From Desulfobacterales bacterium (lineage in GTDB: Bacteria > Desulfobacterota > Desulfobacteria > Desulfobacterales > UBA5852): a DNA stretch of 5,140 bases. The DNA lies in NCBI GenBank assembly GCA_030066455.1, contig JASJBQ010000332.1, forward strand, positions 1-5,140, given 5' to 3'. Below, piece by piece: positions 1-5,140 of the stretch. Below the pieces are notes generated by a model. It ran no database searches. It saw only the letters and a list, made by a program, of their open reading frames with translations, and was not told the origin of the DNA. The first letter of the stretch is position 1, and every line of letters starts with the position of its first letter. The position numbers were made by a program, and so were the translations under genes.

Positions 1-413
1 TTCTTCGGGATCATCTGGCTCTCTTCGATGCCCGCGGCGTGAATGACCACATCGACGTCCCCGATGGACCGAACGATCGGTCCTACGGCGGCGTTGTCGT
101 TGACGTCCACGGCGTGATAGGTCACCCGGGCGCCCATCGATCGCAGGGTCTCCAGGTTGGCGGCGGATTCGCGCAACTTGACCACCCGGTCCAGCGCTTT
201 TTTGATCTCGAGAGGCTTGGCGCCCTGCATCTCGGCCTTGAGCCGGGCCATGAGGTCGGCCTGGCTGACGGCGGCATCGGCCAGTGCCGGATCCAGACCG
301 TTCACGTCGCTGCGGCCCAGGATTTCAAGGCGCACCGGATGGATTCCCACCAGACTTTTAAGGATCTCGAAGGTAATACCGCGAGCCCCACCGGTCACCA
401 GGACCGTATCGTC
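1..413 (-). other. Domain: ketoreductase (KR), NADPH-binding N-terminal part, cut by the window edge
   Basis: Residues 1576-1712. The first strand and glycine-rich turn read TVLVTGGARGITFEI (TGGARGI at residues 1582-1588, 395-375), the second strand ends in LEILGRS with Arg1609 placed to bind the NADPH 2'-phosphate, VDVND follows the third strand, and VVIHAAG is the usual fourth strand. These identify a short-chain dehydrogenase/reductase of the type that reduces beta-ketoacyl thioesters. Between LGRS and GARVTYHAVDV is an insertion of about 55 residues (1613-1668), rich in Leu, Ala and Lys. Modular polyketide ketoreductases have about 20 residues here. A similarly long helical insertion is typical of Pfa-type synthase ketoreductases. 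The catalytic Ser-Tyr-Lys lies beyond the left edge, so activity cannot be judged. Confidence 0.9.
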
Positions 414-3400
414 CCTGCCGACGAGCGCGTCGGACGTCTCCGGCCCGTCCGGATCGAGCTGCAGGACCCAGCGTTGACCATCGCGATAGCCGCATTCCAC
501 CCGCCGGTCCCCGGAGGTCAGTTCAACCATGAGGGTCTCCACCACCACGTCCGGTCTGGCCGTCATGGCCACATCGAAATCGACCACTTTCACGAGCGTG
601 CCCGGCAATTCCTTGTTGATCGTCTTGAGCATTCCGGCCAGTCCGGCTGATACCGGATCGACCGGTCCGGTGGCCTCGTCGTAGGGCAGCACGGCCGCAT
701 TGAAAGCCGGCATGGCGACGAAGGTATTCGGGTGGTCGAGGCGGTCATAAAGGCCCTGGACCAGAGTGAAAAAATTCTTGAGGCGGCGGTCGATCGCGGT
801 CGGGGTTACACGGCCCGCCTCGAATGCGCCGTCCAGAGGAAGCATGTGGACGATCCCGTCGATTGGTGGGTGATGCTGCTCGATTTCCTTGACAAGTGCC
901 TTGACCGCGGCCGGTGTGCTCCAGTCACAGGCCAGGTCGGCTTCGGCCGTGTCACCGGCGATCAAGGGCGTGCCGCCGTCGTCGCGAATCCGTGCCGCCA
1001 TCAACGGGGCAAAACCCTGGCGATCAGCGGTAATCAGGACGCGGCGGTCCCTGAACCAATCCGTCCGGCCTGTCGTTGCCTCGGCGGGAACGCTGCGGAC
1101 GACCATCCGTTTGACCGGCCCCTCTGTCGGATCAGTCTCAACAGCGGCGGATTCGGCCTCTGCGACCGGAGGCGCCGGTGCTTCCTCAGCGGGTGTGGCG
1201 GATACCCTGGAAGCGAGGTAGTCTCCGATCTTGGTGATGGTATTCAAGTCATTCAGCCGCAAATCCTCGGGCACGTCGAGTCCGAAGTGGGCCGAAACCT
1301 TGCCGAAGATCTCCACCTGCTTGACGGTGTCGATGCCCAGATCGGCCTCGAGGTCGAGTTCGTCCTCGAGCATGTCGGCGGTGTAGCCGGTCTGCGCGGC
1401 GATGATGGTCTTGACGCTGGCAACCAGGTCGCCGACCGCTGGAGCCGTCGGTTTCGTATCCGGCCTTTCCACGTTTACCGGAGGCGCAGCAGTGGTCTTG
1501 ACGGCCGGCGCCTCGACCGGCGCGGCCGCCGGGGCTTCCACCTCGGAGATCACGTGGGGATCGACGCACAGGGTGTTGTCGATGATCTTGAGCTGGGGGC
1601 GCTTCAGACCCGAAATGCGCCGCAGCCAGTTCTCGTAGACGGGGTTGTCTTCGGCCCGGCTTTCAGCGATGCGCCGCACCATCAGGAAGGCAAAGTGCGA
1701 TCCAAAACCGGCGGCATAGTGCAGACCGTACTCGTAGCCGCACCCGTTTTCACCGCAGCTGAAGTTGAGGTCCCCGAATTCCTCCGGCACCCGCGCGAGG
1801 TTGGCAATCGGCGGCACCCGCCCCTCCTGCAGGGCCTTGATCATGACGGCGTCTTCGATGGCCGCCCCCAGGGTGTGGCCGGTGAACCCCTTGGTGTTGG
1901 TGATCGTGATGTTGCGGTAGTGGTCCGGGTAGGTCTGCTTGAGCGAGCCCACCTCGGCCGAAGCGCTGCCGCCCCGGGCAGGGGTGAAGGTCTCGTGGGA
2001 CATGAAGACCATCGAACGGGTGTAGTCGGCCGGGTCGATGTCGTGGTGGGATTCCACCCGCCGCACGAAACGGGCCATCTCCGCGGTCAGGTGCTTCTGG
2101 TCGATCTGGGTGGCGTGGAAGGCGCTGTTGCCGATGTAGGTCCCCAGGATTTCGGCCTGGCCGTTCAGTCCCCGTTCCCGGATGCGGTCCTCGCGCTCGA
2201 TGATCATGGACACGGCGCCGGCGCCCAGGATGGTGCCGTTGCGCTCTTCGTCGAAGGGTTTGGCCGCATCGGTCACCACCTCCTTGATGCTGGCGGCCCC
2301 CAGGGCCAGGAAGCCCGAGGCGATCCAGGGACTCTGGGTCTCGGAAGTGGAGGCCTCACCGCCCACGATGATCACCCGGTCGCAGCGGCCGGTGCGGATC
2401 CAGTCCTCGGCCACGCCCACCGCCTGGGTGGTGGAGGCGCAGGCCCCGCTCATCATCATGTTGGGGCCCTTGGCCTTGATCAGCTGGGCGAAGTGGGCCG
2501 ATCCCAGCGGCACCACGTCGAAGAGCAGGTTGCGCTCGAACTTATAGGACCCGTATTTCTTGCGGCGCTCTTTGATCTTGAAGAACCAGTCGGTGATCTG
2601 CTCCTTGATCTCGGGATCGCGCACGGACTCCATCAGGTGGTAGTAGATGTTTTCCAGCTCCTTGTAGGGACGCACGTAAAACTTGTTATAGTAATATTTG
2701 TTGAGCTGCTCGATAAGGGTCTCGAAGCCTGGAAAGAGAGAGGTCATGATGACGCCGGTGGTCTCCTGCATCTCCGCGGGCAAAGCATAGCCGTTGGGAA
2801 TGCGGTTCCCGGTGGAGGTCTCCCTGTGTTGAAGCACCAGCGGAATGTGCGCGTCCTTCAGGGCCTCGATGCCGGCGGCGATGGCCAGCGCGATGGTCAC
2901 GTCGTAGTCGTAGTCGACGCCGTATTCGTTCTTGAGGTTGAAGTAGCCCAGCTTGCCGGCCAGCTGGATCACGTCGCGGGTGTCGGTGATGTCCAGAAAG
3001 CGGGCGTTGCCGTCCGGCTGTTTGAACACCCGGGTGATGTTCATGTCGACGATCTTCTCTTTTTCCTCCCGGGAGAGGGGCTCGATGAAGTTGCTGCCGG
3101 CGAGCAGTTTTTCGAAGTTGTTGGCGTTGAAAACCTTGTTGCCGGTGCCCGGCAGCCCGATCGCGACGCCGGCCACCACGGCCTTGCCGGTGTAGAAATT
3201 GAAGCGCTCCACGTCGCGCAGGGCTTGCTCGCGCTTTTGTTTTTGAAATTCCCGGAAGGCCATCTCCCGCAGGGCCTTTTCGTTGCGGGCCATGAAATCC
3301 TCGAAATCCGCCCCTGCGGCGAGGGCTTCTTCGGCCTCCGCCGACGCCGGTGCGGGTACGGGGGCGGCCGGCTGGGGCCGGGCCGGAGCGCTGTCCGCGG

Positions 3401-5140
3401 CGGGCGCCTTGAGCAGGCCGTCGGTCTGCAGCTGGTTCACCATCGTCTCTAAAGATTCGACCTCGCCCTGTTTGGCATCGATGGTGGGCTGCGCCGTGAA
3501 GTCTTCGATGGGGATGTTCTTGAGCAGGTTGACCAGGATGCGTCCGGGGCCGATTTCATAAAAGCGATCGAAGCCGGCCTGGCGAACGTTTGCGATCGAG
3601 GCGATGAACTCCACCGGGGAGACGATCTGGCGCACCAGAAGTTTTTTGACGGCCGCGGCGTCGTCCGGGTAGGGTTCGGCGGTCACGTTGGAGATCACCC
3701 GGCCGAAGTCAACCGGGTTGAAGGTGACGCTCTCGAGATAGGCTTCCATCTGTTCGGCCGCGGTGTTGAAAAGCGATGTGTGGAAGGCGCCCGATAGGGC
3801 CAGCTTCTTGAACATTACCTTGGCGTCCTTCAGATAGTCGCAGAAGCGTTCGATGTCGGCCGCGGCCCCGGACACGCCGGTCTGCTTAACGCTGTTCTTG
3901 TTGGCCACGTAGATGTTCTTGACCTTGGAGGCCCGGATCAGCTCGTGCACGGCCTCGGCGTCCTTGAACACCACCATGATGCGGCCCGGCTGCTCCTCGG
4001 TGGCGGCCTTCATGAAGTCGGCCCGTTTGACGATCAGGCGCATGGCCGTTTCGAAGTCAAGCAGGCCGGCGCAGAACAGCGCGCCATATTCGCCCACGCT
4101 GTGCCCGATGAAAACATCGGGCGTCAGGCCGCGGGCTTCGAGATGGCGGAACAGGGCGGCCGAGCTCAGGAAGACGGCCGGTTGAGTGTTCTCGGTCAGG
4201 TTGAGCTGGCGGCTTTCGCCGAACATGATCTCCAGCAGACTGTAACCGCGCATGTCACGGAAGAGGCCTTCACCTTCGTCCAGCACGCTTCGGATCTCGG
4301 GCACCGCGTCATAGAGCGGCTTCATCATGCCGCTGTACTGGGCGCCCTGGCCGGAAATCAGGGCCACCATGCCGCCTTTGCGGGCGGGCAGGCGTCGGGG
4401 GGCGTGGGCGGCGGCGACCGCCATGGTCCGCTCGGCTTTCGCCTGGGACGGCTTGGCCACGGTTTCCAGCCAGGCCGGCAGGGTTCCGATAACGGTGTGT
4501 CCGTGGTTGCCGCCCACGCCGTTGACATTGGCGGCGAAATACAGGCTGCGGCGATTTTCCAGACGCAATAGCCGCGGGTTGGCCTTGAGCCGGGCGCCGC
4601 GGCCCACGATGGAAGAGTCGGCCGAATAGCTGTAGTTGGGCAGGATGGTTTTCCTCTGGTTCATCAGCAGCAGCTTGGTCAGCACCACGGCCGGGTTGGC
4701 CGATTTGAAATAGCCGAACTCGGACTTGATGTTCCCGAAGAGGGTGCCCGCCGGCATGCGCGCCTCCAGAGCCTGCTTCTCCATCAGATCCAGGAAGAAG
4801 TTGGAAACCCCGAAGACGTCCAGGTGGGCGATCTGATGCTTGGTGACCGGAAGGTGGCGGTAGCATTCGTCCACGGCCTCGCCGTACTTCTTCTCGGAGG
4901 GTGCGAGCAGGTGCTCGGGCACCGAGGATTTGAAGGCCGTGTGGCCAAACTCACCCAGGATCGGGAGGTTGTGCTTCTTGGCGTAACGGTAGGTGGTGAC
5001 CACCTGGATGGCGGCCCCCTCGCTCATCACGTAGCCGTTGGCGTTCTTGTCGAAAAAGCGGCAGTCGCCGTCCGAGAGCAGGCTCAGGCGTTTGAAGGCC
5101 AGCATCACCGTGGGGTAGAAATTGGCGTCCACCCCGCCGG
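1..5140 (-). CDS. Giant iterative type I fatty-acid/polyketide (Pfa-like) synthase, internal fragment, both ends outside the window
   Basis: One minus-strand frame stays open from 5138 to 3 (1,712 codons), without a stop and without a start that could be called the N terminus. Hand translation gives, in order: a degenerate ketosynthase C-terminal half (residues 1-223), an acyltransferase (257-548), a linker, a complete ketosynthase (653-1157), a linker, a carrier-type domain (1237-1308), a linker, a pseudo-ketoreductase (1342-1575) and the start of a ketoreductase (1576-1712). Diagnostic motifs are GHSVGE (AT), GACAST, HETFTP and GFTGHT (KS2), LGIDTVKQ (carrier) and VTGGARGI (KR). Together these domains would load malonyl units, condense and reduce them, presumably as a cytosolic multienzyme. 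The arrangement and the long KR insertion resemble polyunsaturated-fatty-acid and secondary-lipid synthases more than modular polyketide synthases. The product is unknown. Alternatives are a glycolipid-type (hglE-like) synthase or an uncharacterised iterative polyketide synthase. The domain calls are firm; the pathway assignment is inference. Confidence 0.95.
414..1115 (-). other. Domain: structural pseudo-ketoreductase subdomain (degenerate Rossmann fold)
   Basis: Residues 1342-1575. The stretch directly before a catalytic ketoreductase in type I synthases is normally a truncated Rossmann fold that stabilises it, and this one fits. It has a beta strand plus turn at RVLITADRQGFAPL, where a working reductase would show TGxxxG. 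This is followed by an alpha/beta pattern with IDGIVHMLPLDGAF, FFTLVQGLY, and VSAGLAGMLKTINKE (the usual G..G..KT..KE pattern in this subdomain), then LVKVVDFD. There is no nucleotide-binding glycine motif and no Ser-Tyr-Lys catalytic set, so it is expected to be non-catalytic. The length of about 230 residues agrees with this role. Confidence 0.8.
1116..1214 (-). other. Interdomain linker, Ala/Pro/Glu-rich
   Basis: Residues 1309-1341, between the carrier-type domain and the ketoreductase block. The composition is almost wholly Ala, Pro, Glu, Val and Thr (for example TPAEEAPAPPVAEAE), acidic and low in hydrophobic residues, consistent with a disordered tether. Confidence 0.75.
1215..1430 (-). 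other. Domain: acyl-carrier-protein-like domain with Thr at the phosphopantetheine position
   Basis: Residues 1237-1308, 72 residues, the normal length for a carrier domain. The four-helix pattern is visible: LVASVKTIIAAQTGY (helix 1), the acidic loop ELDLEADLGID, helix 2 from TVKQVEIFGKV, and a closing helix around ITKIGDYLASRV. In canonical carriers, including the LGIDS repeats of Pfa synthases, the residue after D is the Ser that receives 4'-phosphopantetheine. Here the codon at 1326-1328 reads Thr (residue 1271). The rest of the helix-2 recognition surface is intact. From memory, LG(I/V)DTVKQ occurs in related bacterial megasynthases, so this may be a subfamily feature rather than a mutation. 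It is either an unusually modified carrier or a non-carrying structural domain. Confidence 0.9.
1431..1667 (-). other. Interdomain linker between KS2 and the carrier domain
   Basis: Residues 1158-1236. A short folded-looking stretch (PVYENWLRRISG, then KRPQLKIIDN) is followed by a segment rich in Ala, Pro, Val and Glu (about 1545-1435) without predicted secondary structure. This looks like a mobile tether that lets the carrier domain reach the catalytic domains. No extra motif is seen. Confidence 0.75.
1668..3182 (-). other. Domain: beta-ketoacyl synthase (KS2), complete, intact active site
   Basis: Residues 653-1157. It starts at AVVAGVAIGLPG, the usual N-terminal ketosynthase signature. 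The active-site Cys lies in SGACASTTQA (Cys900, 2439-2441), the first His in MSHETFTP (His1048, 1995-1997), the conserved Lys and second His in NTKGFTGHTLGA (Lys1083; His1088, 1875-1877). The domain ends near FGSHFAFLMV. Cys-His and His-His spacings (148 and 40) are close to FabF's (140 and 37). Its function is decarboxylative Claisen condensation of a malonyl unit onto the growing chain. At about 505 residues it is longer than the usual 410-425. The excess lies mostly before the Cys, in a Tyr/Lys/Glu-rich insertion. ETF in place of the usual GTGT after the first His marks it as a divergent subfamily. It is the only catalytically complete ketosynthase in the window. Confidence 0.95.
2530..2696 (-). 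other. Insertion within KS2 ahead of the active-site cysteine
   Basis: Residues about 815-870. From the glycine of GVIMTS (795) to Cys900 there are 105 residues, against roughly 55 in FabF. The extra segment is strongly hydrophilic and aromatic (KYYYNKFYVRPYKELEN, then KIKERRKKYG) and its DNA is locally richer in A/T than the surroundings. It would be expected on the surface near the dimer interface or the substrate entry. The placement of the insertion is an estimate by eye against FabF. Confidence 0.6.
3183..3494 (-). other. Interdomain linker: Ala/Pro-rich segment followed by a charged helical stretch
   Basis: Residues 549-652 between AT and KS2. The first part (about 3420-3320) is dominated by Ala and Pro with few hydrophobics, typical of flexible tethers in megasynthases. 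The second part (about 3310-3190) is rich in Glu, Lys, Arg and Gln with regularly placed Leu, Phe and Met (for example FMARNEKALREM) and is probably a helix or short coiled coil leading into KS2, comparable to docking helices in front of ketosynthases. There is no carrier-domain motif here, so KS1-AT and KS2 share no carrier between them. Confidence 0.75.
3495..4370 (-). other. Domain: acyl carrier protein malonyl/acyltransferase (AT), complete
   Basis: Residues 257-548. It opens with the GQGAQYSGM motif typical of FabD-type acyltransferases, carries the nucleophile elbow GHSVGE (Ser347, 4098-4100), a substrate-carboxylate-binding Arg in VKRADFM (Arg372), the segment NSVKQTGVSG, and the catalytic His in SGAFHTSL (His453, 3780-3782). 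It ends with the family's closing YEIGPG. All catalytic residues are present. A Phe directly before the active-site His and the conserved Arg are what malonyl-specific transferases have, as opposed to the YASH motif of methylmalonyl-specific ones, so malonyl-CoA is the likely extender. It sits directly behind KS1 by a roughly 33-residue linker (4371-4469), as in KS-AT didomains, and would feed the carrier domain about 800 residues downstream. Confidence 0.95.
4470..5138 (-). other. Domain: degenerate ketosynthase, C-terminal half (KS1, likely non-condensing)
   Basis: Residues 1-223 of the fragment. The thiolase-fold C-terminal half is recognisable from GGVDANFY, DCRFFD, GYVMSEGA, the GNIKSEFGYF segment and a closing NVNGVGGNHGHTVIG, which match in order the usual ketosynthase landmarks (FD..A.G.V..EGA, G..KS..GH, N.FGFGG.N.H). 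The two catalytic histidines are gone. Where ketosynthases read EAHGTGT this one reads DVFGVSN (Phe109, 4812-4814), and where they read KSNIGH it reads KSEFGY (Tyr143, 4710-4712); the Lys at residue 138 is kept. The nucleophilic Cys position lies upstream of the window. A ketosynthase without both histidines should not catalyse decarboxylative condensation, so a chain-length-factor-like or scaffold role is inferred. Confidence 0.88.

What the first reader, a model, noticed from the sequence alone, without database searches (positions are those of the whole stretch)
1215..1430. Carrier domain with Thr instead of Ser at the phosphopantetheine attachment site
The motif reads LGIDTVKQ, with Thr at 1326-1328, where carriers of this type normally read LGIDS. 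The ACC codon for Thr is not reached from the TCx Ser codons without changing the first base, and the surrounding helix is well conserved, so it does not look like decay. I recall LG(I/V)DTVKQ from other large bacterial synthases that pair it with a KS carrying ACASTTQA, as here. If so, a whole subfamily either primes Thr, or uses this domain as a non-carrying scaffold while the true carriers lie elsewhere. It is the only carrier-like domain in 1,712 residues, so the question decides how this protein works.
Basis: partly seen in the sequence, partly recalled or inferred. Interest (0 to 1): 0.72.

Follow-up and report, generated by a model that had tools for sequence, protein, structure and literature searches.

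The report
Synthase whose carriers bear threonine
A very large lipid-making enzyme family, found in several bacterial groups and in archaea, keeps threonine where carrier domains normally keep the serine that holds the swinging arm, and often comes with its own arm-attaching enzyme, so it probably attaches the arm to threonine.

Summary
In detail: the minus-strand carrier reads EADLGIDTVKQVEIF, with Thr (codon ACC) at 1326-1328, at the first residue of helix II in the model, where carriers have Ser. It is not decay. In 80 genome loci found by the neighbouring ketosynthase alone, 211 of 214 readable carrier sites are Thr, 2 Ser, 1 Glu; in 237 listed homologues 935 of 970 are Thr, 29 Ser, 6 other. 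Relatives carry one to six such carriers; 224 of 237 show Thr only.

The scaffold reading is unlikely. An Sfp-type phosphopantetheinyl transferase with conserved catalytic residues is fused to the synthase in 8 of 80 loci and encoded in the same locus in 14 more, including the closest relative with a complete frame. In 19 of 23 Asgard genomes with a fused transferase, it is the only one found, and no carrier with Ser at the site was found. Ser and Thr interchange on the tree.

Best reading: Thr is the natural attachment site, primed by a Thr-competent transferase, although E. coli ACP S36T is reported not to be modified (PMC3340395). Mass spectrometry is still needed. I found no earlier description in the papers searched.

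The parts
3..5138 (-). Fragment of one megasynthase reading frame, 1712 aa, open at both ends; uncut frames of Desulfobacterota and Spirochaetes relatives are about 3700-4100 aa (stop to stop), fused Asgard ones mostly 3300-3800 aa
   Evidence: relatives
4479..5138 (-). C-terminal part of a KS-like domain whose two catalytic His positions read Phe and Tyr (VFGVSN, FGYFKSANP); domain end estimated
   Evidence: sequence and alignment with relatives
3519..4358 (-). Acyltransferase domain (PF00698) with GHSVGEY
   Evidence: 122.2 bits; Ser347, Arg372, His453 invariant in 15 aligned sequences
1671..3215 (-). Ketosynthase KS2 with ACASTTQA; Cys900, His1048 (SHETFTPARGG), Lys1083, His1088
1206..1427 (-). 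Carrier (ACP) domain
   Evidence: PF00550; AlphaFold2 model mean pLDDT 87.3; best PDB matches are acyl carrier proteins
1326..1328 (-). Thr1271 (codon ACC) at the phosphopantetheine attachment position, first residue of helix II in the model
9..407 (-). N-terminal part of the ketoreductase domain (PF08659), cut by the window end

Best explanation
The window holds part of a PUFA-synthase-like type I fatty acid/polyketide synthase, from a family whose carrier domains use threonine instead of serine as the phosphopantetheine attachment residue. In the two complete relatives scanned (L007, L056) the order is enoyl reductase-like domain (PF03060), KS, in L007 a second KS-like domain, AT, KS2, carriers, KR, DH. 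A cognate Sfp-type phosphopantetheinyl transferase, fused to the C-terminus or encoded nearby in part of the family, transfers the arm from coenzyme A to the Thr hydroxyl. The holo-Thr carriers then shuttle malonyl and growing acyl chains as ordinary carriers do. Shown by sequence: Thr and its conservation, the fold model, the transferase with its catalytic residues, genomes in which no Ser carrier was found, Ser/Thr interchange. Inferred: that the Thr is modified, that this transferase does it, and that the product is a fatty-acid-like chain.
For: Conservation: loci were found by KS2 alone. Of 221 carrier domains, 214 cover the site: 211 T, 2 S, 1 E. All four Thr codons occur (ACG 113, ACC 41, ACA 34, ACT 20 of 208), so the constraint acts on the protein. 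In 237 homologues: 935 T, 29 S, 6 other, 7 uncovered. Transferase: 51 of 237 proteins carry the motif near the C-terminus, 44 of them Thr-only. In 80 loci it is fused in 8 and a separate gene in 14, of which 12 overlap or lie within 150 nt of the synthase frame. His88, Asp108, Glu110, Glu129, Lys148, Glu149, Lys153 are invariant in 22 of 22. The model of the Desulfobacter vibrioformis one (mean pLDDT 89.4) best matches Sfp with CoA and a peptidyl carrier (4mrt, E 1e-12). Natural experiment: 23 Asgard genomes with a fused transferase were searched for carriers, 19 of them also with a second model. In 19 the transferase is the only one found and no carrier with Ser at the site was found. Interchange: Ser recurs inside the Thr family, at least 4 changes forced by well-supported branches.
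Against: No direct evidence of modification. E. coli ACP(S36T) is described as unable to receive 4'-phosphopantetheine (PMC3340395, passages), so a Thr-competent transferase must be assumed. In 29 of 51 loci with at least 500 nt beyond the synthase frame no transferase was seen, most of them Desulfobacterales, and none can be seen in the window. In the four bacterial genomes read, 18 of 24 carriers outside the synthase show Ser, the other 6 were not read, so carriers in trans are not excluded there. Completeness of the Asgard genomes is not told. Two of 23 Asgard synthases contain Ser: G006 Ser-Thr-Ser, G018 four Thr plus a diverged fifth domain with Ser. Some arrays hold diverged extra domains with other residues (Gln, Pro, Lys, Glu, Ala, Asn), so not every carrier-like domain keeps a hydroxyl.
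Confidence: 0.82

Rival explanations
1. The Thr domains are non-carrying scaffolds (they hold the megasynthase together or dock partners), and a separate Ser-bearing carrier protein does the chemistry in trans.
For: E. coli ACP(S36T) is reported not modifiable (PMC3340395 passages). The four bacterial genomes read have Ser carriers elsewhere. 29 of 51 loci show no transferase nearby.
Against: Fused or nearby transferases with intact catalytic residues in 22 of 80 loci. 19 of 23 Asgard genomes with no Ser carrier found. Domains that keep the LGID.(V/I)K motif have only Thr or Ser at the site, whereas diverged extra domains and ten small ACP-like proteins of the same Asgard genomes have Glu, Lys, Asn and other residues there: when the arm is not needed the residue drifts. 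Ser and Thr interchange within arrays.
Confidence: 0.1
2. The Thr is conserved for another modification or role, for example phosphorylation or helix capping, and the arm sits elsewhere or only on the few Ser copies.
For: Thr can cap a helix; nothing here measures the modification.
Against: Besides this Thr, the only invariant residue with a hydroxyl or thiol among 39 aligned domains is Thr68; Thr18 and Tyr20 are nearly invariant. 224 of 237 proteins show no Ser copy. It leaves the dedicated transferase without a known substrate.
Confidence: 0.05
3. An isolated substitution, a decaying domain or a sequencing error in this contig.
For: None beyond the surprise.
Against: Thr at 211 of 214 sites in separately assembled loci and 935 of 970 readable sites in homologues.
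Confidence: 0.01

Closest known systems
PUFA synthase subunit PfaA (TIGR02813) with tandem ACPs
   Same: KS-AT-tandem ACPs-KR order; the carrier motif LGID.(V/I)K(Q/R)VE; the Anaerolinea relative P0087 passes the PfaA cut-off (1069.3 against 1010.1 bits)
   Different: Thr instead of Ser; an extra KS2 with ACASTTQA and SHET(F/Y)TPARGG between AT and carriers; KQ instead of KR after the site. In the genome of L001 a separate 2216 aa frame has three LGIDSIKRV carriers beside the Thr synthase
Sfp-type phosphopantetheinyl transferases (Sfp, human AASDHPPT)
   Same: Fold (4mrt, 2cg5) and catalytic residues GID(L/I)E, KEA..K
   Different: Fused to, or encoded beside, synthases whose carriers have Thr
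Acyl carrier proteins (PF00550)
   Same: Helical fold and position of the attachment residue
   Different: Thr at the attachment position
Fungal type I FAS with its own phosphopantetheinyl transferase domain
   Same: Self-activating synthase with a transferase in the same polypeptide (comparison from recall; PDB matches 2was/2wat)
   Different: Different domain order (recalled); Sfp-type transferase here; Ser carrier in fungi (recalled)

Membership tests
Carrier domain PF00550 | Profile score over curated cut-off | tested here: met
   24.6 against 20.8 bits
Carrier domain PF00550 | Helical ACP fold with the attachment residue at the start of helix II | tested here: met
   model
Carrier domain PF00550 | Ser at the attachment position | tested here: not met
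   Thr
Carrier domain PF00550 | Phosphopantetheine covalently attached | not testable with these tools
   needs mass spectrometry
PUFA synthase PfaA (TIGR02813) | Model score over cut-off | tested here: not met
   window 230.8 against 1010.1 bits (fragment); P0003 550.5 not met, P0087 1069.3 met
PUFA synthase PfaA (TIGR02813) | KS-AT-ACPs-KR order | tested here: met
   met with an extra KS2 inserted
PUFA synthase PfaA (TIGR02813) | Tandem Ser carriers (LGIDS) | tested here: not met
   one carrier, Thr
PUFA synthase PfaA (TIGR02813) | Polyunsaturated fatty acid product | not testable with these tools
   no product data
Sfp-type phosphopantetheinyl transferase (neighbour or fused domain in relatives) | Sfp fold and catalytic residues | tested here: met
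   none is visible in the window itself
Sfp-type phosphopantetheinyl transferase (neighbour or fused domain in relatives) | Activity on Thr carriers | not testable with these tools
   needs an assay

The most novel reading that the evidence does not exclude
Phosphopantetheinyl-threonine is a second natural carrier chemistry, used across bacteria and archaea by one synthase family and its own Thr-competent transferase. It may insulate the synthase from the housekeeping AcpS/AcpP system, which in E. coli is reported unable to modify a Thr carrier. In a number of Asgard archaea it would be the only acyl-carrier system.
Probability: 0.6. Interest if true: 0.86.

Novelty: new variant of a known kind. 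Interest (0 to 1): 0.8.

Why it matters
Carrier proteins are recognised by their Ser, and a Ser-to-Thr change is used as an inactive control in E. coli (PMC3340395, PMC9456370; passages). If a family spanning bacteria and archaea primes Thr, that rule is not general, transferase specificity is wider than assumed, and annotation that demands Ser would call these synthases dead. It would also offer an orthogonal carrier-transferase pair for engineering. It adds a self-activating synthase to Asgard archaea, where carrier-based fatty acid synthesis is, from recall, an open question.

Tried and rejected
Rejected: decay, error or isolated substitution; codon distance as evidence (each change is one base). 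The scan of viral contigs with the window protein gave no relative. Literature: ten searches of one open-access library, with capped listings, showed no paper that I recognised as describing natural Thr carriers. One search (GIDTVKQ) found no paper with that string; its three hits, on the shorter string, were seen as a listing and are unrelated. could not answer for DTVKQ because its second term matched so many papers (7,518 in all, ten listed). Passages read do not describe Thr at the attachment site; PMC13291983 states the conserved Ser for its own carriers. By the tool's own account most subscription papers are missing.

Rows dropped: ten weak stretches (21-27 bits) of the transferase profile, nine at the C-terminal ends of synthase frames without a transferase and one in a neighbouring frame of L049, were ignored, as were two extra stretches in L056. 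The tree uses 45 rows, thinned at 62% identity from 238 (all Ser-bearing rows kept), 42 with a known state. Of the 23 Asgard genomes, four were not counted as lacking Ser: G006 (Ser-Thr-Ser), G018 (a diverged fifth domain with Ser), G045 (separate Ser carrier) and G055 (separate Ser carrier beside its own AcpS-like transferase). G042, counted, is a truncated frame. G037, with a 548 aa frame and a second transferase, was not examined. Twelve weak carrier matches (E above 0.1) in the counted genomes were read and do not look like carriers, nor do two in G067. Thermoplasmatota G022 has six Thr carriers and one Ser carrier on another contig, so it is not a Thr-only case.

Full report
What is there. 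The window is one minus-strand reading frame, open at both ends. It contains the C-terminal part of a KS-like domain, an AT, a ketosynthase (KS2) with ACASTTQA, one carrier domain and the start of a KR. The carrier reads EADLGIDTVKQVEIF; Thr1271 is encoded by ACC at 1326-1328. PF00550 matches above its cut-off. The model has mean pLDDT 87.3 with Thr as the first residue of helix II; its best PDB matches are acyl carrier proteins. In the printed comparison with solved structures the Thr stands opposite their attachment Ser.

Conservation. A search with the KS2-carrier region listed the best 120 of 1502 homologues, the window among them. Their carriers read Thr at 483 sites, Gln at one, Ser at none, with five uncovered. 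That search is biased because its words come partly from the carrier. I therefore searched the 84,980-species genome collection with a KS2 alignment that contains no carrier letters. They held 221 carrier domains in 74 loci; of 214 that cover the site 211 are Thr, two Ser, one Glu. Of the six loci without carriers, L061 and L075 run into the contig end; L014, L033, L047 and L077 have a short KS2 frame with no carrier in it. All four Thr codons are used, so the constraint is on the protein. Titles name Desulfobacterota, Spirochaetes, Myxococcota, Chloroflexi, Elusimicrobia, Xanthomonadales, Thermoplasmatota and Asgard archaea.

Is Thr primed? A second protein search, with the array of L056 (Heimdallarchaeum endolithica, Ser-Thr-Ser), added 117 proteins (best 120 of 306 listed). 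Over all 237 proteins there are 935 Thr, 29 Ser and 6 other residues. The six others (Gln 2, Glu 2, Pro, Lys) lie in domains that have lost the DTVKQ motif or are partial. 224 of 237 show Thr only. Four show Ser only: P0127 and P0235, of the ordinary PUFA-synthase type (LGIDSIKRVE, 14 of the 29 Ser), and P0146 and P0203, members of this family with a fused transferase. Four are mixed (P0121, P0122, P0158, P0160). On the KS2 tree, Ser-containing rows fall at several places inside the Thr family: fewest changes 5, at least 4 forced by well-supported branches. Where the motif is kept, Thr and Ser replace each other and nothing else was seen, as expected if a hydroxyl is needed.

Transferase. A profile of the fused transferases found one in 22 of the 80 loci. 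It is fused in L046, L048, L052, L053, L056, L064, L073, L074 and separate in 14. Of the 14, 12 overlap the synthase frame or lie within 150 nt. Among them are L001, the closest relative with an uncut frame (78% identity over the KS2 query; L003, 82%, is cut), and L007, directly after the synthase frame. In 29 of 51 loci with at least 500 nt beyond the synthase frame none was found; a few of these are cut on the other side. The catalytic residues are invariant in 22 of 22, and the fold model matches Sfp bound to CoA and a peptidyl carrier.

Natural experiment. In the phylum of the Asgard genome G016, 50 of 145 genomes have a PF01648 transferase; 21 of them in a frame over 2000 aa. I searched those 21 and two truncated ones for carriers, and 19 of the 23 again with TIGR00517. 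In 21 of 23 all motif-keeping carriers of the synthase are Thr; G006 is Ser-Thr-Ser, and G018 has four Thr and a diverged fifth domain with Ser. G011 and G045 also hold diverged extra domains with Lys, Glu, Ala or Asn at the site. In 19 of 23 no carrier with Ser at the site was found and the fused transferase is the only one found. In eight of these (G011, G015, G016, G039, G043, G054, G067, G068) nothing but the synthase carriers matched above noise. In ten the only extra is a small ACP-like protein with Glu, Lys or Asn at the site, which shows what an unprimed carrier fold looks like. The nineteenth, G042, is truncated. G067 is one 4.36 Mb contig of a 4.4 Mb genome, with five Thr carriers, one transferase, and two weak carrier matches that do not look like carriers. 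A transferase kept in such a genome needs a substrate, and the Thr carriers are the candidates. Completeness of these genomes is not told.

Bacteria. In four bacterial genomes 30 of 55 carrier matches were fetched: six belong to the Thr synthase and read Thr; of 24 others 18 show Ser and 6 were not read. The genome of L001 holds both a 2216 aa frame with three LGIDSIKRV carriers and the Thr synthase. In the Elusimicrobium genome G175 one transferase was found, on the contig of the Thr synthase, and Ser carriers are present, so it may serve both. Carriers in trans are therefore not excluded in bacteria.

What contradicts it. E. coli ACP(S36T) is stated not to be modified by 4'-phosphopantetheine and fails to complement (PMC3340395, passages); acpP S36T also fails to suppress a lapD defect (PMC9456370, passages). 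So the transferase here would have to differ in specificity. No modification data exist in this study.

Known or new. The synthase is of the PUFA-synthase kind. Ten searches of one open-access library, most subscription papers missing, showed no report of natural Thr carriers. I rate it a new variant of a known kind.

Noticed in passing
window 4479-5138 (-): The KS-like domain before the AT lacks both catalytic His: HGTGT reads FGVSN and the GH motif reads GYFKSANP. Phe and Tyr at these places recur in 25 of 28 sequences compared, mostly Desulfobacterota; L005 and L045 matched an intact KS instead and P0010 does not cover it. It may act like a chain length factor.
   Followed up: partly
L056 (G006); P0121, P0122: Heimdallarchaeum-type arrays read Ser-Thr-Ser, a ready-made internal comparison of the two residues in one protein.
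   Followed up: partly
G030-G036, G038, G040, G041 (L143-L150, L152, L153): Small ACP-like proteins (81-101 aa frames) in Asgard genomes with Glu, Lys or Asn at the attachment site: carrier folds that cannot be primed there, function unknown.
   Followed up: partly
L014 9179-10936; L033 8126-10936; L047 734-2377; L077 from 9296: Short KS2 frames with no carrier in the fetched locus. The genomes of L014 and L033 also gave a locus with Thr carriers (L040, L027, by contig title); in the genome of L047 no PF00550 or PF01648 match was found.
   Followed up: no
L007 3020-14809 and L056 4451-15007: Complete synthases start with a PF03060 domain (the PfaD-type enoyl reductase family, recalled), so one polypeptide has nearly all steps of fatty acid synthesis; in L056 it includes the transferase.
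   Followed up: partly
G175 C50 (L065): Elusimicrobium genome with one transferase found, directly after the Thr synthase frame, although Ser carriers also exist: one enzyme may prime both residues.
   Followed up: partly
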